From Anaerolineales bacterium (GTDB taxonomy: Bacteria > Chloroflexota > Anaerolineae > Anaerolineales > E44-bin32): 52,794 bases of DNA. Location: assembly GCA_037382465.1 (NCBI GenBank), contig JARRPX010000044.1:1-52794 (forward strand), in the 5' to 3' direction. A program made the position numbers and the translations under genes. Below are positions 38,616 through 52,794 of this stretch, one piece after another; the first letter of the stretch is position 1, and the number at the start of each line of letters is the position of its first letter. The notes under the pieces were generated by a model. That model was not told the DNA's origin and did not search any database. It saw nothing but the letters and a program-made list of their open reading frames with translations.

Positions 38616-38654
38616 TCCGGTTCAATTGCTGCAAGGTGCGGAAAGGGTGTGCGT

Positions 38655-39998
38655 ATGGCCCGAGAAAAAATCAACGTGGACGTCATGGTCGTCGGCGGGG
38701 GGATCGCAGGTATGCAGACGGCGCTGGATCTCGCTGACCAGGGCTTTCAAGTGGCGCTCGTGGAGCAAGAGCCCAGCATCGGCGGGAAGATGATCGCCTT
38801 GAGCAAGGTCTTTCCGACGTTGGACTGCTGCAGCTGTATCACCACCCCGAAAATGTCCGCGGTGGCGCATCACGAGAACATCCGCTTGATGACCTATACC
38901 GAAGTGCAGTCCGTAGCCAGAGAATCGGGACGCTTCCAGGCGCAGCTGCTCAAGCATCCGCGTTACGTGGATGAGGCACTCTGCACCGGATGCCGCCAGT
39001 GTGAATATGCCTGCCCGATCGATCTGCCGGCGGCATTCGATCTGGGCTACGGTGCGCACCGCGCCATCCGGGTTCCATTTTCCACCGCAGTCCCGCAGTA
39101 CGCCGTACTGGACATCGAGCACTGTCTGCTTTGCGGGAAATGCGAGAAGGTCTGTCCCGTGTCGGCGATCGACTTCAGCCAGAGCGAACAATCGATTCAA
39201 GTGGAGGCCGGTGCGGTCGTGCTCGCCACCGGTTTCGAGACCACACCCCGCGACGCCAAGGCGGAGTACGGCGGGGGAACATTCCCCAACGTGATCGACG
39301 CCCTGTTCATGGAACGGCTGCTCGCCCCGACGGGACCCTACGGGCACGTGCTGCGGCCTGGCGACGGCAAGGAGCCGATGTCGATCGGTTACGTGCAGTG
39401 CGCGGGTTCGCGCGACTGCACCCTGGGCGTGGAATACTGTTCCCGGATCTGCTGTATGTATGCCATCAAGCAGGCTCAGTTGCTTTCCGGCGCGCTGCCG
39501 CTGGCGGACATCACCATCTACTACATGGACATCCGCACTTTCGGCAAGGGATACGAGCAGTTCTACAAAAACGCCCAGGCGATGGGCATCGAATTCATCA
39601 AAGGCAAGGTCTCCAAGATTACACAGGACGAAGAGCAGAATCCGATCGTGCACGTGGAAATGGTGGATCTGACTCCGCGCTTGCTCCAGAATACCCACGA
39701 CCTGGTTGTGCTTTCAGTGGGCATGCTGCCCAGATACGATCCCGCCTCGATCTACGGAGTCGCGACGGCGGAGGACGGTTTCGTCGATTCTCCGTTCGCC
39801 AACATGGCTCCCATGCTGACCAACCAGCCCGGAATCTTCGCCACCGGAGCGGCGACTGGCCCGATGGACATCGTCGACAGCATCATGATGGCCAGCGCCT
39901 GCGCGGCGGAAACTTCCGCCTATCTGCGGGGCAATGGACACGAAAATACGTCCGCCTTCGAGCAACGCACTTCGCAAAAGGAAAAGCTCCATGCCTGA
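38655..39998 (+). CDS. QmoA/HdrA-like flavoprotein
   Basis: A 447-residue FAD-containing heterodisulfide reductase A-like protein. The FAD-binding motif is VVGGGIAGMQTALDLADQG (residues 13-31). Next is a CCSC cluster region (58-61). Two [4Fe-4S] motifs follow: C110-x2-C113-x2-C116-x3-C120, and C157/C160/C163/C167 (CLLCGKCEKVCP). The remaining FAD domain ends with ATGAATGPMDIVDSIMMASA. Length and domains match QmoA of the quinone-interacting membrane-bound oxidoreductase. AAAGGGTG precedes the ATG. It overlaps the following HdrA-like gene by 8 bases. No aprAB is in the window. Confidence 0.88.
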   Translation: MAREKINVDVMVVGGGIAGMQTALDLADQGFQVALVEQEPSIGGKMIALSKVFPTLDCCSCITTPKMSAVAHHENIRLMTYTEVQSVARESGRFQAQLLKHPRYVDEALCTGCRQCEYACPIDLPAAFDLGYGAHRAIRVPFSTAVPQYAVLDIEHCLLCGKCEKVCPVSAIDFSQSEQSIQVEAGAVVLATGFETTPRDAKAEYGGGTFPNVIDALFMERLLAPTGPYGHVLRPGDGKEPMSIGYVQCAGSRDCTLGVEYCSRICCMYAIKQAQLLSGALPLADITIYYMDIRTFGKGYEQFYKNAQAMGIEFIKGKVSKITQDEEQNPIVHVEMVDLTPRLLQNTHDLVVLSVGMLPRYDPASIYGVATAEDGFVDSPFANMAPMLTNQPGIFATGAATGPMDIVDSIMMASACAAETSAYLRGNGHENTSAFEQRTSQKEKLHA

Positions 39999-42051
39999 GA
40001 AAACAGAAACGGGACACAAGCGCACGTCAGAAGTCAGAGAGGAAATCCGCATCGGTGTGTACACCTGTTACTGCGGCGGCAACATCAGCGACGTCGTCGA
40101 CTGCGAACGCGTGGCCAGAACGCTCTCCGCTTTGCCCAACGTCGTGGTATCGCGCACGAACATGTCCATGTGCTCCGATGCGGGCCAGGCGCTGATCGAA
40201 GAGGACATCCGCGAGAAGGGCGTCAACCGTGTGGTCATCGGCGCCTGCGCGCCGTCGCTGCACGAACTGACCTTCCGGGGCACGCTCGAGCGCGCCGGCT
40301 TGAATCCCTACCTGTATTATCACGTCGGGCTGCGGGAACAATCCAGTTGGGTGCATCACGACGATCCCGAGAACGCCACGGAGAAGTCCATCCGACTGAT
40401 GGCTTCAGGGATCGCCAAAGCGCGTTTGCTCGATCCGCTGCAGCCCTTCCAGTTGGAAGCCAGACAGCACGCCCTCGTCATCGGCGGCGGTGTGGCGGGA
40501 TTGCGCTGCGCGCTGGACATCGCTCGAAACGGCATTCAGGTCACGTTGATCGAAAAGACCCCGTTCCTGGGTGGACATGCGGCGCAGCTCGAAAACGTGT
40601 TCCCCACCGGCGAGCGCGCACGTGAATTGTTGGATCAACTTATCCGCGAGGCGGCGAGTCACAAGAACATCAGCATTCTCACCCAGGCCAGATTGGTTTC
40701 AGCCAGCGGTTACGTAGGCGATTTTCAGATCCAAGTCGAACAGGATTCCCGCGGTGTCACCGAGAAAAATGCGGACGTCGCCATGCGCGCCTGCGAGCAG
40801 ATGGTTCCCGATCCATATAATTACGGCCTGACCGAGCGCAAATTGGTCTATCGAGCGTATCCCGGTTGCTACCCGTCGATGCCGGCCGTGGATTGGGAGA
40901 ACTGCCCGAACGGCCGACTCGACCTGAATCTCGATGGACAAAGGTTGACCTTGAAGAACGAACCACGCACGATCGAACTCAACGTTGGCGCCATCGTCGT
41001 GGCCACCGGTTTTGACCTGTACGTGCCTCGCCAGGGCGAATACGGGTACGGTGAAATCCCTGAAGTCGTCACTTTACCGCAGTTGATCCGCCACCTGGCT
41101 TTGCTCGAGGATGGGCAGCCGTTTGTCTGGAATGGGCATGCGGTGCGCGATCTCGCATTGATCCACTGCGTCGGCAGCCGTCAAATCGAAGGTGTACACG
41201 AGCCGCAGGCGGACGGCAGCGTCAACAACTACTGCTCGCGCTATTGTTGTACCGCCTCGCTGCATACGTTGGATGAGATTCACGATCGTTATCCGGACGT
41301 CAACGTCTACGACCTTTACCAGGACATCCGCACCTACGGACGCGGCCACGAAGTCTATTACCGCAAAACCCTCGAGAATCTGGTGCGCTTCATCCGCTAT
41401 CGCGGGGATGAAATTCCCGTCGTGAAAGCGGCTGCGGAAGGCGACGGCCATCCTGTGCTGGTGGAGACCGTCGATACGTTGACATGGGGTGAGGCGCTCG
41501 AAATCCCGGTCGACCTCGTCGTCCTGGCGGTGGGCATGATGCCGCGGGACGTCGACGATCTGGTGCAGATGTTGAAGATTTCCAGGGGCACGGACCGCTT
41601 CCTGCTGGAAGTGCACCCCAAGCTGCGGCCGGTCGAAACGGCGGTGCCGGGTGTGGTTTTGGCTGGTACGGCGCAGAGCCCGATGAACATCCAGGAAAGC
41701 TGCGCAGCCGCAAAGGCTGCGGCTGCGAAAGTCGTGGTTCTGCTGGGCAAGGGCAGCGTCGAACTCGAACCTTTCGTCGCCCGTGTCGACGCGGCGCGAT
41801 GCACGGGCAGCGGTCATTGCGTCGAGATCTGTGCCTACGAAGATGCCATCACCCTGGAAGCGTTCTCCGATAACGGGCGTGAGCGAAAAGTCGCCGTTGT
41901 GACGCCGGCGAACTGCGCCGGATGCGGCGCCTGCGTGAGCGCCTGTCCGGAAGGCGCCATCGACGTCCAGGGGTGGACATTGAAGCAGTACCTATCGATG
42001 GTGCAGGCACTCGGCGCGGAATACAGAACGCCGGCGGAGGTGGACGCATGA
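39991..42051 (+). CDS. QmoB/HdrA-like flavoprotein, larger
   Basis: A ~686-residue HdrA-family protein. The N-terminal unit begins IGVYTCYCGGNISDVVD and has RVVIGACAPSLHELTFRG and EQSSWVHHDDPENATEKSIR. The FAD motif is VIGGGVAGLRCALDIARNG (~residues 165-185). The C-terminus has two ferredoxin clusters, CTGSGHCVEICAYEDAI and CAGCGACVSACPEGAI (about residues 604-660). QmoB usually also carries an MvhD domain; that domain is encoded by the gene at 38187, so the subunit seems split. A small HTH gene overlaps its stop codon. Confidence 0.87.
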   Translation: MPEKTETGHKRTSEVREEIRIGVYTCYCGGNISDVVDCERVARTLSALPNVVVSRTNMSMCSDAGQALIEEDIREKGVNRVVIGACAPSLHELTFRGTLERAGLNPYLYYHVGLREQSSWVHHDDPENATEKSIRLMASGIAKARLLDPLQPFQLEARQHALVIGGGVAGLRCALDIARNGIQVTLIEKTPFLGGHAAQLENVFPTGERARELLDQLIREAASHKNISILTQARLVSASGYVGDFQIQVEQDSRGVTEKNADVAMRACEQMVPDPYNYGLTERKLVYRAYPGCYPSMPAVDWENCPNGRLDLNLDGQRLTLKNEPRTIELNVGAIVVATGFDLYVPRQGEYGYGEIPEVVTLPQLIRHLALLEDGQPFVWNGHAVRDLALIHCVGSRQIEGVHEPQADGSVNNYCSRYCCTASLHTLDEIHDRYPDVNVYDLYQDIRTYGRGHEVYYRKTLENLVRFIRYRGDEIPVVKAAAEGDGHPVLVETVDTLTWGEALEIPVDLVVLAVGMMPRDVDDLVQMLKISRGTDRFLLEVHPKLRPVETAVPGVVLAGTAQSPMNIQESCAAAKAAAAKVVVLLGKGSVELEPFVARVDAARCTGSGHCVEICAYEDAITLEAFSDNGRERKVAVVTPANCAGCGACVSACPEGAIDVQGWTLKQYLSMVQALGAEYRTPAEVDA

Positions 42052-42344
42052 GCGACAAGGAAGACAAGAAAGCACGCACGCAGATGTTGAAAGCGCTGCG
42101 CGAGAAACACGAAGCGAACGTAGAAGCGACGCGCGAGATACTGAAAAATCAACAAAATGTGCGGCGTGATATTCAAAAGGCGCTTGCTGCTGAGCCCAAG
42201 ACCGTTCCTCAAACCGCCGAGGAGATTGGCCTGCCGGCGCATGAGGTGCTCTGGCACGTGATGGCGATGAGGAAATACGGGCTGGTCGAGGAAAGCGACA
42301 TGCAGGGCGATTACTACACGTATCAAATGGCGAAGGAGTCGTGA
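42048..42344 (+). CDS. Small winged-helix-like protein in the Qmo-like operon
   Basis: A 98-residue protein of unknown function. The N-terminal half is charged and probably coiled-coil (MLKALREKHEANVEATREIL). The C-terminal half resembles a winged helix: PQTAEEIGLPAHEVLWHVMA followed by MRKYGLVEESDMQGDYYTYQ. It overlaps the QmoB-like stop (ATGA) and is followed directly by the QmoC-like gene. It could be a local regulator or, by position, a small assembly or coupling factor. I do not recognise an exact family. Confidence 0.7.
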   Translation: MSDKEDKKARTQMLKALREKHEANVEATREILKNQQNVRRDIQKALAAEPKTVPQTAEEIGLPAHEVLWHVMAMRKYGLVEESDMQGDYYTYQMAKES

Positions 42345-42346
42345 GC

Positions 42347-43501
42347 ATGAGTCAGCGCGTCGATGCAACGCTTCTGAAAGAGATCAAGCAGTACGGTGCC
42401 GTGGGAATCGAAAAATGCTTCAACTGCGGCAACTGCACGGCCATATGTCCCCTGACGAGCGACGATCATCTGTTCCCGCGGGATATGATCCGCTACGCGC
42501 AACTGGGGTTGAAAGATCGTCTGCTGCAGAGCACCGACCCGTGGCTGTGTTATTACTGCGGCGACTGTACGCGCACCTGCCCGAAAGAGGCGGAGCCTGC
42601 CGAGACGATGATGGCCATGCGCCGCTGGCAGACGGCGAAATACGATCGATCCGGGCACGCGGAAAAAATGTACACCTCCGAGCGGGAGGTAGGGAAAGCC
42701 ATCGTGCGCACGGCGCTGCTGCCGCTCGCCATACTGCTAATTTATCACCTCGTCACGGGCTTTTCCAACGTCATCACCGATCGGGTGGCGCTGAACGCGT
42801 TTGCTCCCGTGATGTGGGTCTGGGCGATCGTGCTGCTGCACTTCGGCCAGTTGGGGCTGCGGCTTTTCCGCAACGCAAGCAACATGTTCCGGCACGTCAT
42901 GCACCTGGACGATGAGGACCAGCCGAAGATCCCCATCGGTATTTACCTCCAGGAATTAAAGAATTTCATCGTCCACGGCCTGACCCAGAAACGCTGGCTC
43001 GAATGTGGTGAAGATCGCAGCCGCTGGCTGAAGCACTTGATCTTGATCAGCGGATACGCCACGATGCTGGTCCTGGTCGTTGGATTGTTATGGTGGTTCC
43101 AGACCGACGAGTTGTACCCGATCTACCATCCACAGCGCTGGATCGGCTACCTGGCGACGATATTCCTGCTCTTCGCTTCGGGAGAAGCCCTGATCGGGCG
43201 GATGCGCAGGCGTGAGGAGATTCACCGCTTTTCCCATCCGACGGACTGGCTTTTTCCGAGCTTTATCTTCGTGGGCGCCGTGACCGGCATTTTGGTCCAT
43301 ATCTTCCGCTATCTGTCCTGGCCGTGGCCGACCTACATCATCTACACCATTCACGTCATGGCGATGGTGGCAATGCTCGATACGGAGGTGGGCATCGGGA
43401 AATGGACGCACTTGATCTACCGGCCGCTCGCCATGTATCTCGAAGCAGTAAAAGCGCGGGCAGCCGAAATGCCAAGTCCGGCGACGGCACCCGCAGCTTG
43501 A
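42347..43501 (+). CDS. QmoC-like subunit: ferredoxin domain fused to heme-b-type membrane domain
   Basis: A 384-residue protein. The N-terminus holds an HdrC-like domain with CFNCGNCTAICP and CYYCGDCTRTCPKEAEP, each a [4Fe-4S] site. The C-terminal ~290 residues have about five to six membrane helices with several His residues (HLVTGFSNV, MHLDD, HILI-like LKHLILISGYA, HVMAMVAML) that may bind heme b, as in QmoC/HdrE. The complex would pass electrons between menaquinone and a cytoplasmic acceptor. ATG at 42347 follows AAGGAG by 8 bases; the alternative GTG at 42341 overlaps the upstream stop. Confidence 0.86.
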   Translation: MSQRVDATLLKEIKQYGAVGIEKCFNCGNCTAICPLTSDDHLFPRDMIRYAQLGLKDRLLQSTDPWLCYYCGDCTRTCPKEAEPAETMMAMRRWQTAKYDRSGHAEKMYTSEREVGKAIVRTALLPLAILLIYHLVTGFSNVITDRVALNAFAPVMWVWAIVLLHFGQLGLRLFRNASNMFRHVMHLDDEDQPKIPIGIYLQELKNFIVHGLTQKRWLECGEDRSRWLKHLILISGYATMLVLVVGLLWWFQTDELYPIYHPQRWIGYLATIFLLFASGEALIGRMRRREEIHRFSHPTDWLFPSFIFVGAVTGILVHIFRYLSWPWPTYIIYTIHVMAMVAMLDTEVGIGKWTHLIYRPLAMYLEAVKARAAEMPSPATAPAA

Positions 43502-43550
43502 AACGGATGCGCAATGTTCAGAATCCATTCTATCGATCAGGAGGTTTTCA

Positions 43551-43913
43551 ATGAGTGAAAAGATGGTGGTCGTTTGTAACCACGCCGACCCACCACACGT
43601 CATGCCGACCCTCATCATGGGGTCGTCCGGCGTGGCGCTGGACAACGAGGTGATCTTGTTCTTCTGCCCCGGCGGTGCTCAAGCGCTGCTCGCGGGTGAG
43701 TTGGAGAAGATCGGTACGCCCAAAGGTTTGCCAAATCCCGTCGACCTGTTCAACACGATTCTCGATCAGGGGGGCGAGATCATCCTGTGCGAACTGGCGC
43801 TCGAGAACAAGGGCATTGATCCCAAGGATTTGCGCGACGAGCGAATCGAAATTAAAAACGCGCCATCTTTCCTGTTGGATGCAGAAGGAGCAAACATTAC
43901 ACTCACTTTCTAG
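43551..43913 (+). CDS. DsrE/DsrF-like sulfur-relay protein
   Basis: A 120-residue DsrE-family protein (MVVVCNHADPPHVMPTLIM, then NEVILFFCPGGAQALLAGE and LDQGGEIILCELALENKGI). The Cys in LFFCPGG and IILCEL are candidates for the persulfide site. Such proteins receive sulfur from TusA. AGGAGG precedes the ATG. It is the last gene of the Qmo-like operon and is followed by a strong terminator, which supports its membership. Confidence 0.87.
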   Translation: MSEKMVVVCNHADPPHVMPTLIMGSSGVALDNEVILFFCPGGAQALLAGELEKIGTPKGLPNPVDLFNTILDQGGEIILCELALENKGIDPKDLRDERIEIKNAPSFLLDAEGANITLTF

Positions 43914-45082: not shown

Positions 45083-46042
45083 CTAGTCTTTTTCGACCTC
45101 AATCACACATCCGGCTCCAGCCCGAATGAAATCCTGCTTATATTCCTTTTCGAACATTTCGATCGCTCGATCTCCCGTGCAATGACTCGGCGCCACTTTG
45201 GTTACACCCAACCGTCGAAAGTCGGCCAGGATCTTCTCGATCTCTGCCGCGCTCTTGTCGCCGAGGTGAAAGCCTCCCATAACCAAATAGACATCTTCCC
45301 CGAACAAGTTCTTGGCGCGCTCGATCACCTGCACCACGCCGGGGTGCGCACAGCCGGTGATCATCACCAACCCTTTCGTCGAGCGAACGACCAGGGCTTG
45401 CTCGGGAATACTGCCGCCGATCTCACCCGTCGTGAAGACACCGGCGGCAAGTGGTTGGCCGGGGGAGACCTCGAGTACGTCTGCGGTTTGAGCAATCCGT
45501 CCTTTCGTGCTTTCCGGGAACGAAGGTAATAGATACACCAACGGATGTGTGCTCAGGGCCAGTAATCCCTGCAGACCGCCTGTATGGTCGTTGTGATTGT
45601 GTGACAGGATCACCCGCTTGATCCGAGTAGGATCGATTTCCAGACTGCGCATGTTGGCGAGCAGGATTGGCGCGTCGCCGCCCGTGTCGAACAGCGAAGT
45701 GCTGCCGCGATATTCCACAAGCGCAGCAAATCCCCATGCAGTTTGTAAATCCGGGTTAAAGGGCCTGTTGTCGAATACGATCGTGATGGTCAGTCGATCG
45801 GAAGTTGCAGCACCGGTCGTTTCCATTGCAAACCCTTCCATCGTGCCGGCTTGTGATTCTGGTTCCTGATTTGCGTCCGGCAGGTTGACTCCGCTTTCAA
45901 CGGATGGCTTGGTCGCGTCGGGCGAGGAATGATCAGGCGCCGTTCCTGCGCCCCGGCTACAGCTACTGAGAAGCAGGATCAGGAAGCCATTCAACCATGC
46001 ATTACGCCTTCTCATTTTTAGATCCAGCTGTCCCGTTTTCAT
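45083..46042 (-). CDS. MBL-fold metallohydrolase lipoprotein
   Basis: A 319-residue exported lipoprotein with Cys28 in the lipobox (LLSSC). The metallo-beta-lactamase motif is SHNHNDHTGG (H148, H150, D152, H153). Further ligands are in ITGCAHPGV and MGGFHLGD, so all metal ligands are present. The layout matches the COG1237-type MBL family (annotated as methyl-dihydropterin-related synthases), though a lipoprotein is unusual for them. The frame is open to 46399, but the upstream part overlaps the deformylase in another frame. The start at 46042 (or 46015) leads straight into the signal peptide. Confidence 0.85.
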   Translation of the reverse strand: MKTGQLDLKMRRRNAWLNGFLILLLSSCSRGAGTAPDHSSPDATKPSVESGVNLPDANQEPESQAGTMEGFAMETTGAATSDRLTITIVFDNRPFNPDLQTAWGFAALVEYRGSTSLFDTGGDAPILLANMRSLEIDPTRIKRVILSHNHNDHTGGLQGLLALSTHPLVYLLPSFPESTKGRIAQTADVLEVSPGQPLAAGVFTTGEIGGSIPEQALVVRSTKGLVMITGCAHPGVVQVIERAKNLFGEDVYLVMGGFHLGDKSAAEIEKILADFRRLGVTKVAPSHCTGDRAIEMFEKEYKQDFIRAGAGCVIEVEKD

Positions 46043-46055
46043 CGAGATGAGACTG

Positions 46056-46717
46056 TCACTCCCGATTAGGATTGATTGGAGTCGAAGATGCTGCATCCCG
46101 GCTGAAATCTTTCGACCCGCTGCTTCGCACCAATCCCGGCTTTCCGGTGTGGCCCGGTTGAATTTCCCTCGACAAAATTGAAGAGACCGGGACGCGGATG
46201 GATTTTCCCGATGGATCTTTTTCGAGGCGATACAAGTCCTGCATGCGTTCGATTCGATCGATGAACAGCACGCCATCCAGGTGGTCGATTTCGTGGTGGA
46301 CGACGACGGCGTCGAAGCCTTCGAAAGTCCGTTCGAACGGTTTGCCTTGCTCGTCCAGCCCCGAAAGGCGTAAGTAGTGCGGGCGAATCGTTTCCCCAAA
46401 CAAGCCCGGGAAGCTGAGGCAGCCGTCGAAATCGCGTCTTTCCTGATCCGCTTCCAGGATCACCGGATTGACAGGGCGGTGAATCTTCTTTGAGTCTCCA
46501 CGGATTGTTCCGCGGATCCCAGTTGGACGATCACGACGCGAAGATGCGCGCCGATCTGGGGTGCGGCCAGTCCAACGCCGTTGGAGTGCGCGGCCAGTGT
46601 GTCCTTGAGATCCCGGATCAGCCGTTTCGCTTTCCGGCCCATCACTTCGACAGGTTCACACTTACGGCGTAATGCGGCTTCGTTTTTTGGGTATTTCAAT
46701 ATTTCTTTTCTTGCCAA
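46056..46717 (-). pseudogene. def: Peptide deformylase, frameshifted
   Basis: Two overlapping frames give one deformylase if a base is restored between about 46470 and 46530. The N-terminal part has motif 1 GVGLAAPQIG. The C-terminal part has motif 2 DGCLSFPG (metal Cys) and motif 3 HHEIDHLDG (two metal His, catalytic Glu). The net loss is one base. The second frame read upstream gives RGDSKKIHRPVNPVILEAD, a natural strand before motif 2, so the gene was recently intact. The C-terminus has a ~40-residue extension beyond the family's core. It removes formyl from nascent Met. Another copy may exist elsewhere in the genome. Confidence 0.85.
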
Positions 46718-46794: not shown

Positions 46795-47772
46795 TTAATG
46801 TCGTTTGTCCGTTTTGCAGTTCCTGTCTTCTGGGAAGTAGGCCTCTTTGTCGCACCAGAATCGCACACCGTTGCGTTCGACGATCTGAACGCGTCCGCTC
46901 GCCGCGATGTGCTCGAACGTCTGTGAAGCGCTTTCTGGCTGCCAATATGCCAGGGTGTGCTTGACTTCGTCCTCGCGCATTGGATGCCGTTGGATGATGG
47001 CGAGTATGGAACTCAGCGGTCCGCTCTCGCTGCCGCGCTCGTAATTGCCTTCAGCCGGATGGACCACTTGTCCGACGTCCCCCAGAAAAGCCATGGCGCG
47101 CAGGATGCCTTCTCCGTCCGCAGGACGCACCCAGGTTTCTGCAGGCGGTCTCGAAGGGAGGTTGAGGTGGATGCAATCGGGTTTGATTTTTCGGAATGCT
47201 GCGGCGAGATCAGATAAGGCTTCTTCGGAGTCGTTCATACCGCGAATCAGCATGACTTCGGGCCACAAATTCCCTCGATATTCGAGGCTAAAATCGATCA
47301 GGCCCTGCAAATGGAGCTCGAAGGGAATTCGTGCGTGCGGACGGTTGATTTTGCGATAGAGTTCCGCTGTACCCGCATCCAGGCTGGGAAGCACCGCATC
47401 GGCCGCGAGTATCTCCTGTCGTACGTCCGGAATGTGCAGCAGTGCACCGTTGGTGATCACGGCAACGGGAATGTCGCAGCGTGCCTTCAATCCCCGGATC
47501 ATCCAGCCCAGTCCGGCGTTCAACAGTGGTTCGCCGGAACCAACGAAAGTCACCCAGTCGATGTCGGTATGATCGTGTTCGTCCAGAAAACGCATTACCT
47601 GCTCCAGAATCAAATCCGGAGCGATGTATTCTTTTCGCAGATTGACGACCGGCCGGCTGCGTCCGAGCTGGCAGTAGACACAATTCCAGTTGCAGGTTTT
47701 CAACGGAATCGGATCGATGCCGAGCGACCGGCCTAATCTTCGCGAGGGTACAGGACCAAAAATGTGGTTCAA
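46795..47772 (-). CDS. Radical SAM protein (COG0731-like)
   Basis: A 325-residue radical SAM enzyme. The cluster motif is CNWNCVYC (C27-x3-C31-x2-C34), in GIDPIPLKTCNWNCVYCQLG. The SAM-binding region includes VGSGEPLLN (GGE-like) and AVITNGALL. The C-terminal ~80 residues (SILAIIQRHPMREDEVKHTL) look like a winged helix. The family is found next to many metal and cofactor systems, and the substrate is unknown. It diverges from the XRE-cupin regulator; the 200-base gap holds repeats that could be operators. Confidence 0.88.
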   Translation of the reverse strand: MNHIFGPVPSRRLGRSLGIDPIPLKTCNWNCVYCQLGRSRPVVNLRKEYIAPDLILEQVMRFLDEHDHTDIDWVTFVGSGEPLLNAGLGWMIRGLKARCDIPVAVITNGALLHIPDVRQEILAADAVLPSLDAGTAELYRKINRPHARIPFELHLQGLIDFSLEYRGNLWPEVMLIRGMNDSEEALSDLAAAFRKIKPDCIHLNLPSRPPAETWVRPADGEGILRAMAFLGDVGQVVHPAEGNYERGSESGPLSSILAIIQRHPMREDEVKHTLAYWQPESASQTFEHIAASGRVQIVERNGVRFWCDKEAYFPEDRNCKTDKRH

Positions 47773-47972: not shown

Positions 47973-48587
47973 ATGAATGATCAAGAGACGTTGGACGTAG
48001 GCACTCGTGTCCGGGAGATCCGTGAGGAACGGCGAATGTCGCTGCGGGCGCTGGCAGAACGATGCGGATTGTCGGTCAACGCCATCAGCCGCATCGAGCG
48101 CGGGGAGAGTTCTCCGACGGTGTCATCGCTGCTCCAACTGGCAACAGGACTCAAGATTCACATCAAGGATTTCTTCGAGACGGGTCCGGAGCAGTCTACG
48201 ATCGTCGTTCGCAAGGACAAACGCCTTCGCTCGCTCGGCGACGGTGCGCGGATGGAGAGTCTGGGCGCTGGTTTACCCGGCCAGATTCTGGAGCCGTTCT
48301 TGATGACCATCGAACCTGGGGCGCTGGGTGTCGAACAGCCCTGTGAGCACGAAGGCGAGGAATTCGTGCACTGTCTCGAGGGGGAGATCGAGTATCAAGT
48401 CGGGGAGCAATGGCTCCGTCTGACAGCGGGCGACAGTCTTCTCTTCCTGGCGAATCAGGCGCACATGTGCCGCAATTCAGGATCGCAGAAGGCGGTCGTC
48501 CTGTTGGTCCTTGCGTCCAACGATCAAGATGCCGGGCTCTCCGGCCAACAACATCTGATGACGATCAGCGGACGGATTCCCGGGTAA
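47973..48587 (+). CDS. XRE-family regulator with C-terminal cupin domain
   Basis: A 204-residue transcriptional regulator. The HTH at ~residues 9-63 reads RVREIREERRMSLRALAERC and then GLSVNAISRIERGESSPTVS. A cupin at ~110-195 reads EQPCEHEGEEFVHCLEGEIE, then LRLTAGDSLLFLANQAHMC. Such proteins sense small ligands (sugars, amino acids or metabolites) through the cupin. GGAGAAGG lies before the ATG. The next genes (NifX-like and MinD-like) lie on the same strand about 85 bases away, so it could regulate them. Confidence 0.92.
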   Translation: MNDQETLDVGTRVREIREERRMSLRALAERCGLSVNAISRIERGESSPTVSSLLQLATGLKIHIKDFFETGPEQSTIVVRKDKRLRSLGDGARMESLGAGLPGQILEPFLMTIEPGALGVEQPCEHEGEEFVHCLEGEIEYQVGEQWLRLTAGDSLLFLANQAHMCRNSGSQKAVVLLVLASNDQDAGLSGQQHLMTISGRIPG

Positions 48588-48671: not shown

Positions 48672-49037
48672 ATGAAATTGGCATTTACATTGAAGACAAG
48701 GGCGGATAATTCGAGTCTCGAGCGTCGTTTTGGGCGCTGCCCGTACTTTCTGATCGTCGACACAGATTCGGGCAAGCGGGGAATTATGGAAAACCCGGCG
48801 CTGCAATCACAGCACGGTGCCGGTACACAGGCGGCGCAATTTCTCGTCGAAGAAGGCGTCGAAGCCGTGATCAGCGGGGATTTTGGTCCGAATGCTTATT
48901 CGGTGTTGGATGCGGCCGGCGTGCGCATGTATTCGGCGACAGAGAAGCCGGTAGAAAACCTGTTGTCGGATTTTCAAGACGGGAACCTCCGGCGTGCCAC
49001 GCCGCGTGGTGGACGGGGTCGCGGCAGGCGGCGATGA
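48672..49037 (+). CDS. NifX/NifB-type dinitrogenase iron-molybdenum cofactor-like protein
   Basis: A ~121-residue protein of the NifX/NafY/MTH1175 family, which binds Fe-S or metal clusters. It starts MKLAFTLKTRADNSSLERRF and has GRCPYFLIVDTDSG, VEEGVEAVISGDFGPNAYSV, and a Gly/Arg-rich tail (ATPRGGRGRGRRR). Family members outside nitrogen fixation are often beside MinD-like ATPases and hydrogenases, as here. The frame is open from 48651; I use the ATG at 48672. Its stop overlaps the next start (ATGA). Confidence 0.88.
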   Translation: MKLAFTLKTRADNSSLERRFGRCPYFLIVDTDSGKRGIMENPALQSQHGAGTQAAQFLVEEGVEAVISGDFGPNAYSVLDAAGVRMYSATEKPVENLLSDFQDGNLRRATPRGGRGRGRRR

Positions 49038-49900
49038 TTCTCACCGTCGCCAGTGGAAAGGGAGGCACCGGGAAAACGACCATCGCTGCGAGCCTGGCGG
49101 TGGCAATTGCCGATGAATTTCCACTCTATCTGGACTGCGATGTAGAAGCGCCGAACGCGCATATTTTTCTCAGTCCGGAATTCACTCAGACCCAGAGGGT
49201 GAATCAACTCGTCCCATCGATCGACGAAACCCGCTGTGATGGCTGCGGACGCTGCGCCGAAGTGTGCCAGTATCACGCCATCGTCGTGCTCGGAGACAAG
49301 GTGCTCGTCTTTCCCGAACTGTGTCACGGCTGCGGAAGCTGCACGCTGCAGTGTCCACAGCGGGCAATCGAGGAGGTTCCCAATGTGCTGGGATTGCTGG
49401 AAGCCGGAACTGCACGGGAGGGAATTCGTTTCGCTCGCGGCGTATTGGAGATCGGTCAGCCCATGGCCGTGCCCATTATTCGGGCGCTCAAACGTTGGGG
49501 ACCGTTCGGGGACATAGATACGGTCATACGCGACGCGCCTCCGGGGGTTTCGTGTCCGGTGGTCGAAACGATGTCGGGTGCGGATTTCGTTCTGCTGGTC
49601 ACAGAGCCGACGCCGTTCGGACTGCACGATTTACATCTTGCCGTACAGCTCGCAGGCGAGCTCGGTCTGCCCGTGGGTGTGGCAGTGAATCGCGAGGGGA
49701 TCGGCGACGGGCGTGTGGATGAATATTGCCGGTCGGTGGACATCCCTGTTTTACTGCGCATTCCCTTTAGCGAACGAATCGGTAGAGCCCTGGCGCGCGG
49801 CGAGAACCTGGTTGAAGCGTTCCCCGAGTATCTCCCGCTATTCCGTGGCTTGTACGTGGACATCCGCAGCCGGTTGATCGAACGAGAAGGGATGAGATGA
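49034..49900 (+). CDS. MinD/Mrp-type ATPase with inserted ferredoxin domain (COG1149), first copy
   Basis: A 288-residue P-loop ATPase with the deviant Walker A KGGTGKTT (TVASGKGGTGKTTIAASLAV). Two [4Fe-4S] sites follow: CDGCGRCAEVCQYHAI and CHGCGSCTLQCPQRAI (around residues 65-115). The C-terminal MinD part includes IRDAPPGVSCPVVETM and VTEPTPFGLHDL. These proteins are thought to assemble or carry Fe-S clusters. The pair with the next gene, flanked by two NifX-like genes, makes a symmetric four-gene unit. ATG at 49034 overlaps the upstream stop. Confidence 0.9.
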   Translation: MILTVASGKGGTGKTTIAASLAVAIADEFPLYLDCDVEAPNAHIFLSPEFTQTQRVNQLVPSIDETRCDGCGRCAEVCQYHAIVVLGDKVLVFPELCHGCGSCTLQCPQRAIEEVPNVLGLLEAGTAREGIRFARGVLEIGQPMAVPIIRALKRWGPFGDIDTVIRDAPPGVSCPVVETMSGADFVLLVTEPTPFGLHDLHLAVQLAGELGLPVGVAVNREGIGDGRVDEYCRSVDIPVLLRIPFSERIGRALARGENLVEAFPEYLPLFRGLYVDIRSRLIEREGMR

Positions 49901-50796
49901 AGCAGCTCGTGATCCTCAGCGGCAAGGGCGGCACGGGCAAGACCAGCATCGCTGGCGCCTTGTCTCATCTGGCCAACGAAAATGGTGGAAGCAAGTCGAT
50001 CGTGATTGCCGACGCCGATGTGGACGCCGCGAACCTGGAATTGATCCTGTCACCCAGGTACACGCAGCGCGAGGACTTCTGGAGTGGCAAAATCGCCGCG
50101 ATCGACCAGGAACTGTGCGAGTCGTGCGGGGAATGTGTGCAAGTGTGCCGCTTCGATGCAATAAACGAAGCGAGTGATGGCTATTCTGTCGACCCGTTTG
50201 CGTGTGAGGGATGCGCTGCTTGTTTTTACGTCTGTCCGTCCGAAGCGGTCACGATGAAAGATCAGCTTGCCGGCGCCTGGTTCCGCTCGGACAGCCGCTA
50301 TGGGTTGCTCTATCATGCTGCGCTGCGTCCGGCGCAGGAAAATTCCGGGAAACTCGTCACGTTGCTCAAGCAGCGCGCGAAACAGCGTGCACTCGATGAA
50401 AAATGCGATCTATTGATCGTCGACGGTCCGCCCGGAATCGGTTGTCCCGTAATTTCAGCCCTCTCAGGTGCAGACGTGGCCCTGATCGTCGCTGAGCCAT
50501 CCAAAGCCGGCGTGCACGACATGCACAGGATCGTAGACACTGCCGATCATTTTGGTCTGCCTTGTGTGGTCTGTGTCAATAAAACGGATTTGTCGGTCGA
50601 GGGTTCGAGAGAGATAGAAGACTACTGCCGGGACAAAGGCGTGAAGCATGTGGGCGCGATTCCGTTCGACATCGATGTGCCTTGTGCCATGGCCCAGGGG
50701 CAGACCGTGATTGCCTACCGGCCGGATGGCCCGGCAAGCCTGGCAATCCGGGAAATGTGGCGGCGAATCGAAGCGGTATTGTGGGGTCCGGAGTAA
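49897..50796 (+). CDS. MinD/Mrp-type ATPase with inserted ferredoxin domain (COG1149), second copy
   Basis: A 299-residue paralogue of the previous protein with the same domain order: Walker A LSGKGGTGKTSIAGALSHL, ferredoxin sites CESCGECVQVCRFDAI and CEGCAACFYVCPSEAV, then VDGPPGIGCPVISALSGAD. The identity with copy one is clearly not high, so the duplication is old. Overlaps the upstream stop by 4 bases. Together they may act as a heterodimer for Fe-S delivery, perhaps to the hydrogenase encoded downstream. Confidence 0.9.
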   Translation: MKQLVILSGKGGTGKTSIAGALSHLANENGGSKSIVIADADVDAANLELILSPRYTQREDFWSGKIAAIDQELCESCGECVQVCRFDAINEASDGYSVDPFACEGCAACFYVCPSEAVTMKDQLAGAWFRSDSRYGLLYHAALRPAQENSGKLVTLLKQRAKQRALDEKCDLLIVDGPPGIGCPVISALSGADVALIVAEPSKAGVHDMHRIVDTADHFGLPCVVCVNKTDLSVEGSREIEDYCRDKGVKHVGAIPFDIDVPCAMAQGQTVIAYRPDGPASLAIREMWRRIEAVLWGPE

Positions 50797-50828
50797 TGCA
50801 TGAGAATTCCAATCAGGAGGTTTGAGCA

Positions 50829-51209
50829 ATGCGTATTGCAATTTCGACGGAAGAGAACAAAGGTCTCGAGAGCAGGGTAAGCCACCATTTTGGACGCTGC
50901 CCCTATTTCGTGATCGTCGATCTTGAGGATAAGAAAGTGGAAAAAGTCGACGTGATCGAAAACCCGTTTTTCGCCCGACACGAGCCGGGCATGGTGCCAG
51001 GTTTCATCAACGAGCAGGGGGTGCAGGTGATGATCAGCGGCGGCATGGGCCGCCGGGCTATCGGTTTTTTTCAGGAGTATGGCATTTCGCCGGCGACGGG
51101 GGCGCACGGCACGGTGCAATCGACGTTGGACAGCTACCTGCGTGGTGAGCTTCAGGAAGCCGCACCCTGCCGGGAAAGCGTCGAACACGCGCACGGTGAC
51201 CCGCATTAA
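50829..51209 (+). CDS. NifX-like protein, second copy
   Basis: A 126-residue NifX/MTH1175-type protein starting MRIAISTEENKGLESRVSHH and containing GRCPYFVIVDLEDKKVEKVD, VQVMISGGMGRRAIGFFQEY. A Cys/His-containing tail (EAAPCRESVEHAHGDPH) could bind metal. AGGAGGTTTGAGCA is before the ATG. It is the last gene before the terminator at 51238, so the unit NifX-MinD-MinD-NifX is probably one transcript. Confidence 0.9.
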   Translation: MRIAISTEENKGLESRVSHHFGRCPYFVIVDLEDKKVEKVDVIENPFFARHEPGMVPGFINEQGVQVMISGGMGRRAIGFFQEYGISPATGAHGTVQSTLDSYLRGELQEAAPCRESVEHAHGDPH

Positions 51210-51237
51210 GTGTCAGCGCGCCGCGCGGCAAATAAAG

Positions 51238-51275
51238 AAACCCGAAAGGTCTATAAACCTTTCGGGTTTGTCCTT
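51238..51275. terminator. Intrinsic terminator after NifX-like gene
   Basis: Perfect 13-bp stem AAACCCGAAAGGT (51238-51250) / ACCTTTCGGGTTT (51257-51269), loop CTATAA, then TGTCCTT. It sits between convergent genes; the leading A run also gives a partial U-tract on the minus strand. Confidence 0.82.
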
Positions 51276-51289
51276 CCATAGTATAAGCG

Positions 51290-51781
51290 TTATTGGCTGA
51301 TCTGGCCGGCGAGTTCGACGCGCGTGTCCAGCAAGCGGTTATGCAGCGCTTTAGCGACGCCCAGCATCAGCCTGTAGCCCAAATCCGTGTTTTCCTCGCA
51401 CAGTTTGCGGAGTCCAGCCGCCTCGATCTGAATCAGCTTACCATCGCTGCGGGCGATTCCCGAGGCGTTGAGTTGATAGGGCGGCAGCAGCGCAGACAAG
51501 GCCATCAGATCGCCGGCGACGACCCTGCCGACGACGACTTTCTTCCCACTGCCAAGCGTGAAAGCGATATCGACTTCACCTTCGATTACTAGATACAGAT
51601 GGGTGGCTTCCTCGCCTTTTTCATAAATCCTCGCAGTAGCTTTGAAGGCCGAACTTTCGTGGAAAATTTCCTCGCCGGCTTTGAAGGACCTTTCTTCACT
51701 GATCATGGCGACGGCTTTGATGCAGCTTTCACTGATGCCGGCAAAATGGGGATAACGTCGTAGGATTTCAGGTGAGATCAT
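51290..51781 (-). CDS. Cyclic-nucleotide-binding-domain protein without DNA-binding domain
   Basis: A 163-residue protein that is almost only a CNB domain (FKAGEEIFHESSAFKATARI, YEKGEEATHLYLVIEGEVDI and VVAGDLMALSALLPP). There is no HTH. The phosphate-binding cassette shows no Arg in GDLMALSALL, so binding of cAMP or cGMP is doubtful. The first half appears to have a short insertion before YEKGEEATHLY. The start overlaps the stop of the hydrogenase protease gene (ATGA), tying it to the hydrogenase operon. Such proteins are often linked with group 3 hydrogenases; the role is unknown. Confidence 0.85.
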   Translation of the reverse strand: MISPEILRRYPHFAGISESCIKAVAMISEERSFKAGEEIFHESSAFKATARIYEKGEEATHLYLVIEGEVDIAFTLGSGKKVVVGRVVAGDLMALSALLPPYQLNASGIARSDGKLIQIEAAGLRKLCEENTDLGYRLMLGVAKALHNRLLDTRVELAGQISQ

Positions 51782-52251
51782 TGGATTTCCCTTTCCATTT
51801 CGAGAGCGAATAAGGCTGCGTCCACTGCGTGTGGAAGCGCAGCTTCGACTTCGGGGGATAGACTTTCGTCAAAGGTTTGCACGTCGGCCGCTTCGATGCC
51901 TATGAGCAGGATGTCCTTCGAATCGGGAAGATACGCACCAGCCTGACGTCCGAGCGCAAGCGCAGTGGGTAGATTCATATCGTGTGCCGAGGCACTGCGC
52001 TGCGTGGGCACGTCGTCCGGTGAGAGAACGTGAATCGTACCGGGCGCAGCTCCGGTCTGGATGGCGTCGATGATCACGGCGCGATCGAAACCGATCATGC
52101 GTTCCATCAGGCGTAGGCCGCCCCAGTAATCCTCGTCGATTTCGATTTGTTCGTTCTGCGGAAGAATCTCGCGCAGCATTTTGGCGACGCGCAATCCGAC
52201 ACTGTCGTCTTTGAGAAGCGGATTTCCGAGTCCAAGTACAAGCGTTTTCAC
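51778..52251 (-). CDS. Hydrogenase maturation protease
   Basis: A 157-residue endopeptidase of the HyaD/HycI/HoxW type that trims the C-terminus of the NiFe-hydrogenase large subunit. The start is VLGLGNPLLKDDSVGLRVAK, with the metal-ligand Asp of the family. Then IDEDYWGGLRLMERMIGFDR and VIIDAIQTGAAPGTIHVL, followed by SAHDMNLPTALAL. It lies about 75 bases downstream of the large-subunit gene and upstream of the CNB gene, on the same strand, which fits a hydrogenase operon. Confidence 0.93.
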   Translation of the reverse strand: MKTLVLGLGNPLLKDDSVGLRVAKMLREILPQNEQIEIDEDYWGGLRLMERMIGFDRAVIIDAIQTGAAPGTIHVLSPDDVPTQRSASAHDMNLPTALALGRQAGAYLPDSKDILLIGIEAADVQTFDESLSPEVEAALPHAVDAALFALEMEREIQ

Positions 52252-52327
52252 TTTTTTATTATACCGGGAAAAATCGGGGGATCAGGAGCGAAAGCGGCCC
52301 TGATCCCCGTTTGGAATTCTATACGGA

Positions 52328-52794
52328 TCAAAGATTTTGGGTCAAGCGTTCGATGACCTCGCCGTCTTTGTCCCGAATGACGACTTCGAGCGGCATCTGG
52401 CCGGGAAGCGTGTGCGTGGCGCAGGCCATGCACGGATCGTAGGCCCGGTAAGCCATCTCGATCGTGTTCAACAAGCCTTCCTTGATCTCAACTCCTTTGG
52501 TGATCAACCCCTGGGCGGCTTTCTTGACCGACATGTTGATGGCGGCGTTGTTGTTGGTCGTTCCGACGATCAGGTTGACCTTAGTGAGCACGCCCCGCTC
52601 ATCGGTCCAGTAGTGATGCGTGAGTGTGCCGCGCGGCGCTTCGACCTCACCGACGCCTTCCGTGGGCGTCTCGGTCGGCAGCACGCGGAATTCTTCACCG
52701 GTGATCTCGGAATCCGTGGCCAATTCCACCCAGTGCTCCGTTGCGTAGAAAAATCTTTTAACATCGGTTTTTGACATAATGTTGCTGCTCTCGT
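52328..52794 (-). CDS. NiFe-hydrogenase large subunit, C-terminal part (cut by window edge)
   Basis: The last ~155 residues of a group 3-type NiFe-hydrogenase large subunit. The C-terminal metal-binding motif is DPCMACATH (YRAYDPCMACATHTLPGQMP), which holds two of the four Cys ligands of the NiFe site. The tail after the His is what the neighbouring protease would remove. The frame stays open past ATG 52777 to the window edge, so the gene continues beyond it; family length is ~430-480. HNSTIEM-type features (NTIEMAYRAYD) and TERGVL-like lead (DERGVLTKVNLIVGTTNNNA) match HoxH/MvhA relatives. Confidence 0.93.
   Translation of the reverse strand, partial: ESSNIMSKTDVKRFFYATEHWVELATDSEITGEEFRVLPTETPTEGVGEVEAPRGTLTHHYWTDERGVLTKVNLIVGTTNNNAAINMSVKKAAQGLITKGVEIKEGLLNTIEMAYRAYDPCMACATHTLPGQMPLEVVIRDKDGEVIERLTQNL

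What the first reader, a model, noticed from the sequence alone, without database searches (positions are those of the whole stretch)
48672..52794. Symmetric NifX-MinD-MinD-NifX unit beside a NiFe hydrogenase operon
The order and paired paralogues suggest a cluster-carrier system (two ferredoxin-MinD ATPases, two NifX-type metal carriers). Convergent to it are hydrogenase large subunit, maturation protease and CNB protein. The XRE-cupin regulator upstream could control the unit. A role in Fe-S or NiFe-cofactor maturation is possible; it is not nif itself because no nifHDK is visible.
Basis: partly seen in the sequence, partly recalled or inferred. Interest (0 to 1): 0.5.

Follow-up and report, generated by a model that had tools for sequence, protein, structure and literature searches.

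The report
Orange-protein-type metal-cluster carrier operon
Four adjacent genes in an uncultured Chloroflexota bacterium encode two ATP-binding iron-sulfur proteins and two small metal-cluster carriers, an ordinary member of a gene set found in many anaerobes and probably not a special partner of the hydrogenase that lies next to it.

Summary
In detail: NifX1-MinD1-MinD2-NifX2 lie at 48672-51209 (+), with convergent genes for a CNB protein, a HycI protease and the end of a NiFe large subunit. The hydrogenase reading is not borne out. Among 41 homologous loci with at least 5 kb on both sides, 38 carry NifX and 40 MinD1, but 1 a NiFe large subunit. Of 33 Chloroflexota genomes with the pair, only this one shows a NiFe gene beside it, and 4 have no NiFe match. 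In two relatives the hdr-mvh-hycI-CNB operon stands with 7 kb and 9.6 kb beyond it and no such unit. The 'symmetry' is superficial: MinD1 and MinD2 are two deeply separated groups found in bacteria and archaea, and NifX2 more often has a His/Cys tail. The closest known system is the Orp3-Orp4-Orp8 core of the Desulfovibrio ORP complex, which co-purifies (PMC6345978); its MrpORP and sigma-54 parts are missing here. Most likely the unit is an ATP- and ferredoxin-dependent heteromeric machine that loads or reduces metal-sulfur clusters on NifX carriers. New member of a known kind; low to moderate interest.

The parts
48672..49037 (+). NifX1: single-domain NifX/ORP-type carrier, 121 aa, pI 9.6, Arg/Gly-rich C-terminal tail; nearest solved structure MTH1175 (1eo1)
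49034..49900 (+). MinD1: P-loop ATPase with inserted two-cluster ferredoxin domain, 288 aa; Cys174 seven residues after Asp167, invariant in 36 aligned homologues
   Evidence: AlphaFold2 pLDDT 96.2
49897..50796 (+). MinD2: second, deeply diverged Fer4-MinD ATPase, 299 aa, 34% identical to MinD1; Cys183 seven residues after Asp176, invariant in 40 aligned homologues
   Evidence: AlphaFold2 pLDDT 95.0
50829..51209 (+). NifX2: single-domain NifX-type carrier, 126 aa, pI 5.6, Cys/His-containing C-terminal tail; nearest solved structures 2yx6 (PH0822), 1t3v and 1o13
51238..51269 (.). stable hairpin between the convergent operons; terminator-like on the - strand, effect on the + strand uncertain
51290..51781 (-). 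CNB (cNMP-binding) protein, last gene of the neighbouring hydrogenase operon; not part of the unit
51778..52251 (-). HycI-type hydrogenase maturation protease of the neighbouring operon; not part of the unit
52328..52792 (-). C-terminal part of an Mvh-type NiFe large subunit (group 3c by gene order, class name recalled); N-terminal part is on contig C19; not part of the unit
47973..48587 (+). XRE-cupin (PuuR-like) regulator upstream; not conserved beside the unit
46795..47772 (-). radical SAM protein; its family was found in 27 of 101 loci (window included), so a recurrent neighbour
45083..46399 (-). metallo-beta-lactamase-fold hydrolase ORF (start uncertain); its family was found in 22 of 101 loci
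   Evidence: family named by eye; no Pfam scan of this gene was completed

Best explanation
The four genes form one operon for a cytosolic metal-sulfur cluster handling complex of the ORP-core type. MinD1 and MinD2 form a heteromeric ATPase; each half carries two [4Fe-4S] clusters in an inserted ferredoxin domain and one further nearly invariant Cys in the switch II loop. Driven by ATP and electrons through the ferredoxin domains, the pair would load, reduce or hand over a polynuclear metal-sulfide cluster to the two NifX carriers. NifX1 would bind an anionic cluster, helped by its basic tail; NifX2, with a Cys/His tail, would bring or take a metal. The adjacent hydrogenase operon is a separate transcription unit that lies there by local rearrangement. 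Shown here: gene content, conservation, deep pairing, motifs, predicted fold, lack of consistent hydrogenase linkage. Inferred: single operon, complex formation (from the Desulfovibrio homologues), direction of cluster transfer, the metal and the client.
For: Domain calls. In chains of at least 250 aa: Walker A in 81 of 84 MinD1 and 98 of 100 MinD2; exactly two Fer4 motifs in 83 of 84 and 97 of 100; D-x-x-PG-xx-C in 83 of 84 and 99 of 100. Two groups at 100/100 support, each with bacteria and archaea (first 40 of 72 eligible loci; unrooted). MinD1 next before MinD2 in 86 of 101 loci; NifX in 38 of 41 well-flanked loci. Recurrent neighbours include Mrp-type (22 of 41, an upper bound) and NifU-type proteins (9 of 41) (labels by eye, MrpORP named by annotation). 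Predicted MinD1 fold: ApbC first (Z 25.0), then MinD, BchL and ATPase-type HypB (about 23) and NifH (22). Literature: Orp3-Orp4-Orp8 co-purify and receive Fe-S from MrpORP in vitro (PMC6345978, introduction and passages).
Against: No MrpORP in this assembly: both PF02579 places are the single-domain NifX genes, and the gene chain around the window's MinD2 holds only X1-D1-D2-X2, no Mrp, so the donor known from Desulfovibrio is missing or unassembled. Metal and client are unknown. ORP was put forward as a cell-division complex (PMC6345978). The fold is about as near MinD as Fe-S carriers. The basic NifX1 tail is not general: pI above 8 in 17 of 56 loci with both NifX.
Confidence: 0.68

Rival explanations
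1. The unit is a dedicated maturation or nickel-handling module of the neighbouring Mvh-type NiFe hydrogenase.
For: Direct neighbourhood in the window. In two genomes of a sister genus the MinD pair directly follows hypABFCDE. A NiFe large subunit lies 7-10 kb from the pair in L139 and L075. MinD1's predicted fold resembles ATPase-type HypB of Thermococcus, Z 23.0. The NifX2 tail carries His and Cys.
Against: NiFe large subunit near the unit in 1 of 41 other well-flanked loci, 2 of all 100. 4 of 33 genomes with the pair have no PF00374 match at E<=1e-3, three of them 98-99% complete. Genome-level co-occurrence not significant: 8 of 17 versus 93 of 333, Fisher p 0.10, with a threshold that misses group 3 enzymes (the two samples of 350 are taken to be the same). 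The operon exists without the unit in relatives. A hyp set is present elsewhere.
Confidence: 0.08
2. The MinD pair is mainly a positioning system (cell division or polar placement), with NifX proteins as its cargo or partner, as first proposed for Desulfovibrio ORP.
For: MinD-like fold; a C-terminal helix in both models; published amphipathic C-terminal helix in Orp3/Orp4 and polar localisation of MrpORP (PMC6345978).
Against: Nearly invariant ferredoxin motifs and an extra conserved Cys are not needed for positioning. The recurrent neighbours counted are Fe-S carriers and scaffolds; division genes were not searched for as a class.
Confidence: 0.1
3. NifX1 stores iron and sulfide as thioferrate (IssA/IssX-like) and the MinD pair mobilises it.
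For: Basic Gly/Arg tail on NifX1 in the window; R, G and K make up at least half of the last 25 residues in 13 of 77 NifX1 and 0 of 63 NifX2. The IssA family shares the domain and a Gly-rich cationic tail (PMC5524996, passages).
Against: The tail is about 14 residues here versus about 70 in IssA. Most NifX1 homologues lack it; pI above 8 in 17 of 56.
Confidence: 0.1

Closest known systems
[quoted passage not shown]
   Same: Two similar proteins with two [4Fe-4S] motifs each and a NifX/ORP-type protein encoded together (PMC6345978). A Candidatus Mailhella MAG (L126; Desulfovibrionaceae by recall) has the same order NifX1-MinD1-MinD2-NifX2 with a divergent Mrp gene.
   Different: Here there is a second NifX, no MrpORP in the assembly, no sigma-54 activator seen beside it, and an XRE-cupin instead. 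The metal (Mo-Cu reported for Orp8-type proteins) is untested. The D. vulgaris sequences themselves were not compared.
Fer4-MinD pair operons of other anaerobes, e.g. Peptoclostridium acidaminophilum megaplasmid (DUF134-NifX-MinD-MinD-MrpORP) and Chloroflexota plasmid plas-ZRK (NifX-MinD-MinD-DUF59)
   Same: Same MinD1-MinD2 pair with NifX
   Different: Other regulators; MrpORP or DUF59 in place of NifX2; no hydrogenase product named in the flanks fetched (10 and 12 kb)
IssA / IssX iron-sulfur storage proteins
   Same: NifX-type domain with a basic Gly/Arg tail (PMC5524996); NifX1's best solved match is MTH1175
   Different: Tail is much shorter in NifX1; a term search of two papers on IssA (PMC5524996, PMC8351635) gives no occurrence of 'MinD'
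NifH plus NifX of nitrogenase cofactor assembly
   Same: ATPase with a Cys seven residues after the switch II Asp, the spacing also seen in two NifH-family proteins fetched here; NifX-domain carrier; related predicted fold
   Different: Inserted ferredoxin domain, two different subunits, no NifH found in the genome; profile alignment with NifH did not cover the Cys

Membership tests
Fer4-MinD pair + NifX units of anaerobes (COG1149-type, label recalled) | Two adjacent P-loop ATPases, each with intact Walker A and an inserted two-cluster ferredoxin domain | tested here: met
   consensus
Fer4-MinD pair + NifX units of anaerobes (COG1149-type, label recalled) | One member in the MinD1 group and one in the MinD2 group | tested here: met
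   window_D1 and window_D2 each fall in a 40-row group with 100/100 support
Fer4-MinD pair + NifX units of anaerobes (COG1149-type, label recalled) | At least one NifX-family (PF02579) gene in the same gene run | tested here: met
ORP complex of Desulfovibrio | Orp3/Orp4-type ATPase pair and Orp8-type NifX protein encoded together | tested here: met
   through loci of sulfate-reducer relatives, not through the D. vulgaris sequences themselves
ORP complex of Desulfovibrio | MrpORP (Mrp fused to a NifX-type domain) as partner | tested here: not met
   only two PF02579 places in the assembly, both single-domain; assembly 95% complete
ORP complex of Desulfovibrio | Divergent operons under sigma-54 and a DVU2106-type activator | tested here: not met
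   one gene run, XRE-cupin upstream; no member of the sigma-54 family beside the unit
ORP complex of Desulfovibrio | Mo-Cu sulfide cluster on the NifX-type subunit; physical complex of the three core proteins | not testable with these tools
   needs purified proteins
NiFe hydrogenase maturation (Hyp) system | Consistent genetic linkage to, or co-occurrence with, NiFe hydrogenases | tested here: not met
   linkage; co-occurrence test weak
Nitrogenase cofactor assembly (nif) | NifH present in the genome | tested here: not met
   no PF00142 match in G000 at E<=1e-30
IssA iron-sulfur storage | NifX-type domain followed by a long Gly-rich cationic tail | tested here: inconclusive
   NifX1 tail is basic but about 14 residues; IssA tail about 70

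The most novel reading that the evidence does not exclude
The MinD1-MinD2 pair is a NifH-like redox heterodimer: besides four ferredoxin clusters it holds a bridging [4Fe-4S] or a metal at the subunit interface, ligated by the switch II Cys of each half (Cys174 and Cys183). It uses ATP to reduce or insert metal into clusters carried by NifX1 and NifX2. This would be a nitrogenase-independent counterpart of NifH-NifX cofactor assembly, present in both bacteria and archaea (by old descent or by transfer of the pair as one), serving several anaerobic metalloenzymes.
Probability: 0.15. Interest if true: 0.6.

Novelty: new member of a known kind. Interest (0 to 1): 0.25.

Why it matters
As a hydrogenase-linked system it matters little: the neighbourhood looks accidental. 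The survey does sharpen an open question about anaerobes. A pair of ATPases with ferredoxin inserts, one from each of two deeply separated groups and mostly with a NifX carrier, is spread over many bacterial and archaeal phyla. In the papers found here only Desulfovibrio members were studied biochemically, and neither the metal's use nor the client is settled. The conserved Cys at the NifH spacing and the His/Cys tail on NifX2 are two concrete features to test.

Tried and rejected
Hydrogenase maturation module: rejected (searches are inconclusive). Recent symmetric duplication: rejected by the tree. Nif system: no NifH; NifD and NifK were not searched. XRE-cupin as conserved regulator: rejected (blastp at 1e-4 against greedy gene calls); inverted-repeat search upstream gave one short palindrome in one of two stretches; promoter scan no better than shuffles (1 found, mean 1.3).

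General pI contrast between NifX1 and NifX2 (9.6 and 5.6 in the window): not general, median 5.47 and 5.43 in 56 loci, X1 higher in 32 of 56. Only tail composition differs: at least 3 H/C in the last 25 residues in 37 of 63 X2 and 10 of 77 X1; Mann-Whitney p 7e-13. Loci are related, so this p value is not a strict probability.

Profile alignment of MinD2 with NifH covered only a C-terminal stretch (two NifH rows), so equivalence of the Cys rests on motif spacing. Alignment A1 contained a wrong stretch from L056 and was replaced by A2. The greedy gene caller missed genes (including NifX2 of the window); counts quoted are from the ORF-wide HMM counts. There, NiFe and Hyp genes were sought with single sequences (phmmer), so very distant ones could be missed. 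The Mrp HMM also rings for CooC-like ATPases (L042-L044), so Mrp counts are upper bounds. The window's NiFe fragment rings as NiFe_g4, probably because the Mvh query lacked its C-terminus. HypE hits in L042 and L047, L051 and L074 and the HypB hit in L108 are weak or isolated and were not counted as hyp operons. Family labels Mrp, NifU, MBL, PadR, DUF134, DUF5320, DUF59, CooC and sigma-54 are by eye, except where searches show annotation. Literature searches by 'COG1149' and by NifX+MinD+ferredoxin+hydrogenase maturation found no papers in the held library.
Full report
What is there. The window is one whole contig (C44) of a 3.73 Mb assembly, 95% complete. The best named matches to its MinD2 are mostly Anaerolineae, Chloroflexota. 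At 48672-51209 four genes follow each other on the + strand with overlaps of 4 bases between the first three and a 32-base gap before the last. Pfam gives PF02579 for the outer two, and a P-loop ATPase with inserted Fer4 motifs for the inner two. MinD1 and MinD2 are 34% identical. No other PF02579 gene and no other match to MinD2 at E<=1e-20 was found in the assembly.

The neighbour. Downstream and convergent are CNB, a HycI-type protease and the last 154 residues of a NiFe large subunit. The contig ends inside that gene. The end of contig C19 carries hdrC, hdrB, hdrA, mvhD, mvhG (named by similarity and order) and the first 324 residues of mvhA. Against a relative's 488-residue MvhA, C19 covers 1-324 at 95% and C44 covers 348-488 at 88%; the last bases of C19, read on the other strand, encode the missing stretch, so the break looks like an assembly hairpin. 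The full order hdrCBA-mvhDGA-hycI-CNB is seen in L172, and parts of it in L173, L176, L180, L183 and L184; L182 has it without CNB, and L179 ends after hycI. L172 has 7 kb and L173 9.6 kb of sequence beyond the CNB gene with no NifX or Fer4-MinD gene there; the other contigs give less. So the operon is complete without the unit. A hairpin at 51238-51269 lies between the converging genes (z -4.4 for the 86-nt stretch); the simple scan sees a terminator on the - strand only.

Is the unit linked to hydrogenases? (1) I examined 101 loci: the window, 17 from unnamed relatives (L042-L058), 3 from annotated plasmids (L059-L061) and the best 80 of 330 confirmed from named genomes (L062-L141). With HMMs or single queries on all ORFs, 97 have MinD1, 101 MinD2, 83 any NifX. 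Flanks vary, so I also took the 41 loci other than the window with at least 5 kb on both sides: NifX 38, MinD1 40, Mrp-type 22, radical SAM 12, MBL 12, DUF134 11, NifU-type 9, NiFe large subunit 1 (L139), hypD and hypF 1 (L055). Outside these 41, L075 also has a NiFe large subunit, 10 kb from MinD2, and L054 a hyp cluster. (2) For 33 Chloroflexota genomes with the pair (18 of 61 and 17 of 350, G000 and G051 shared; in G016 only one MinD was found and in G011 only pieces), I compared places by eye: only the window has PF00374 within 10 kb. G051, G066 and G132 have it on the same contig but hundreds of kilobases away. Some of the other contigs are only a few kilobases long, so this test is censored. 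(3) Four of the 33 (G016, G115, G171, G195) have no PF00374 match at E<=1e-3; the last three are 98-99% complete. (4) At E<=1e-20 in the phylum sample, 8 of 17 pair-positive and 93 of 333 other genomes have PF00374; Fisher p 0.10. That may be one recruitment event.

What is conserved. MinD1 is the next modelled gene before MinD2 in 86 of 101 loci; the order X1-D1-D2-X2, with or without DUF59 before X2, is found in 16 of 101, window included. Many other orders occur, so the mirror symmetry has no special status. A tree of 40 MinD1 and 40 MinD2 (the first 40 of 72 eligible loci, unrooted) separates them into two groups at 100/100, each holding Chloroflexota, Bacillota, Thermodesulfobacteriota, Planctomycetota, Omnitrophota and several archaeal groups. 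The pair is therefore an old couple that has travelled together, by descent or by joint transfer. Walker A is intact in 81 of 84 and 98 of 100, exactly two Fer4 motifs in 83 of 84 and 97 of 100, and a Cys seven residues after the switch II Asp in 83 of 84 and 99 of 100 (MinD1 and MinD2, chains of at least 250 aa). Two NifH-family proteins fetched here have a Cys at the same spacing; that this Cys binds NifH's bridging cluster is recalled, and a profile alignment did not confirm the equivalence.

The two NifX. In the window NifX1 is basic (pI 9.6) with a short Arg/Gly tail and NifX2 acidic (5.6) with a Cys/His tail. Across loci the NifX2 tail is richer in His and Cys (at least three in the last 25 residues in 37 of 63 versus 10 of 77; in 57 loci with both, window included, X2 has more in 49 and fewer in 5). 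The basic tail of NifX1 is a minority trait (R, G and K at least half of the last 25 residues in 13 of 77, versus 0 of 63 for X2), and pI does not differ in general.

Structure. Models of MinD1 (pLDDT 96.2) and MinD2 (95.0) are confident. The nearest solved folds for MinD1 are ApbC (Z 25.0), then archaeal MinD, BchL and the ATPase-type HypB of Thermococcus (about 23) and NifH (about 22). The fold does not choose between cluster carrier, reductase and nickel ATPase. MinD2's model was not searched.

Closest known system. In Desulfovibrio vulgaris the ORP complex contains Orp3 and Orp4, two similar proteins each with two [4Fe-4S] motifs, Orp8, a NifX-type protein, Orp5 and MrpORP. His-tagged Orp3 co-purifies with Orp4 and Orp8, and MrpORP transfers Fe-S to that core in vitro (PMC6345978, introduction and passages read). 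The orp operons need sigma-54, DVU2106 and, in the E. coli reporter assays, IHF (PMC3897727, passages). The window's unit matches the core but lacks MrpORP in the whole assembly and a sigma-54 activator beside it. I therefore file it as a member of the wider Fer4-MinD pair + NifX kind, working like the ORP core, not as an ORP complex in the strict sense. A 2025 survey of NiFe hydrogenase neighbourhoods does not contain the words NifX, MinD or dinitrogenase in its held main text (PMC12727194, term search only).

Mechanism. Shown: gene set, motifs, fold, deep pairing, no consistent hydrogenase linkage. Inferred: that the four proteins form a complex; that ATP and ferredoxin electrons drive cluster loading or reduction on the NifX carriers; and that the two tails serve different metals or clients. 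Unknown: the metal, the source of the cluster (no MrpORP) and the client enzyme.

Verdict.

Noticed in passing
L054:6-7925 and L055:9396-17180 (genomes G010, G017): hypA-B-F-C-D-E directly followed by MinD1-MinD2 in one sister genus, with the NifX1-NifX2 pair on another contig; a possible recruitment of the pair into NiFe maturation.
   Followed up: partly
window 52328-52794 and end of contig C19 (L039): mvhA is split between two contigs; the last bases of C19 are an inverted copy of the missing stretch, probably an assembly artefact.
   Followed up: yes
window 46056-46717 (-): A peptide-deformylase-like gene appears as two pieces in different frames beside the radical SAM gene (named by eye from its motifs).
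   Followed up: no
window 38649-43913: An HdrA-like pair, a QmoC-like membrane protein (NCBIfam qmoC 203 bits, below its cut-off of 300) and a small DsrE-like protein (by eye) form another electron-transfer cluster; homologues of the two HdrA-like genes and the QmoC-like gene lie side by side in L051, about 4-9 kb from its own MinD2.
   Followed up: no
L042-L046: In close relatives a DUF59-type protein follows MinD2, and a CooC-like ATPase and/or the radical SAM gene lie nearby (labels by eye).
   Followed up: partly
window 51290-51781 and L172, L173, L176, L180, L183, L184: A single-domain cNMP-binding protein is the gene after hycI in this hydrogenase operon in these six relatives too, an unusual partner for a hydrogenase.
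   Followed up: no
L126: A Candidatus Mailhella MAG has exactly NifX1-MinD1-MinD2-NifX2 with a divergent Mrp gene.
   Followed up: partly
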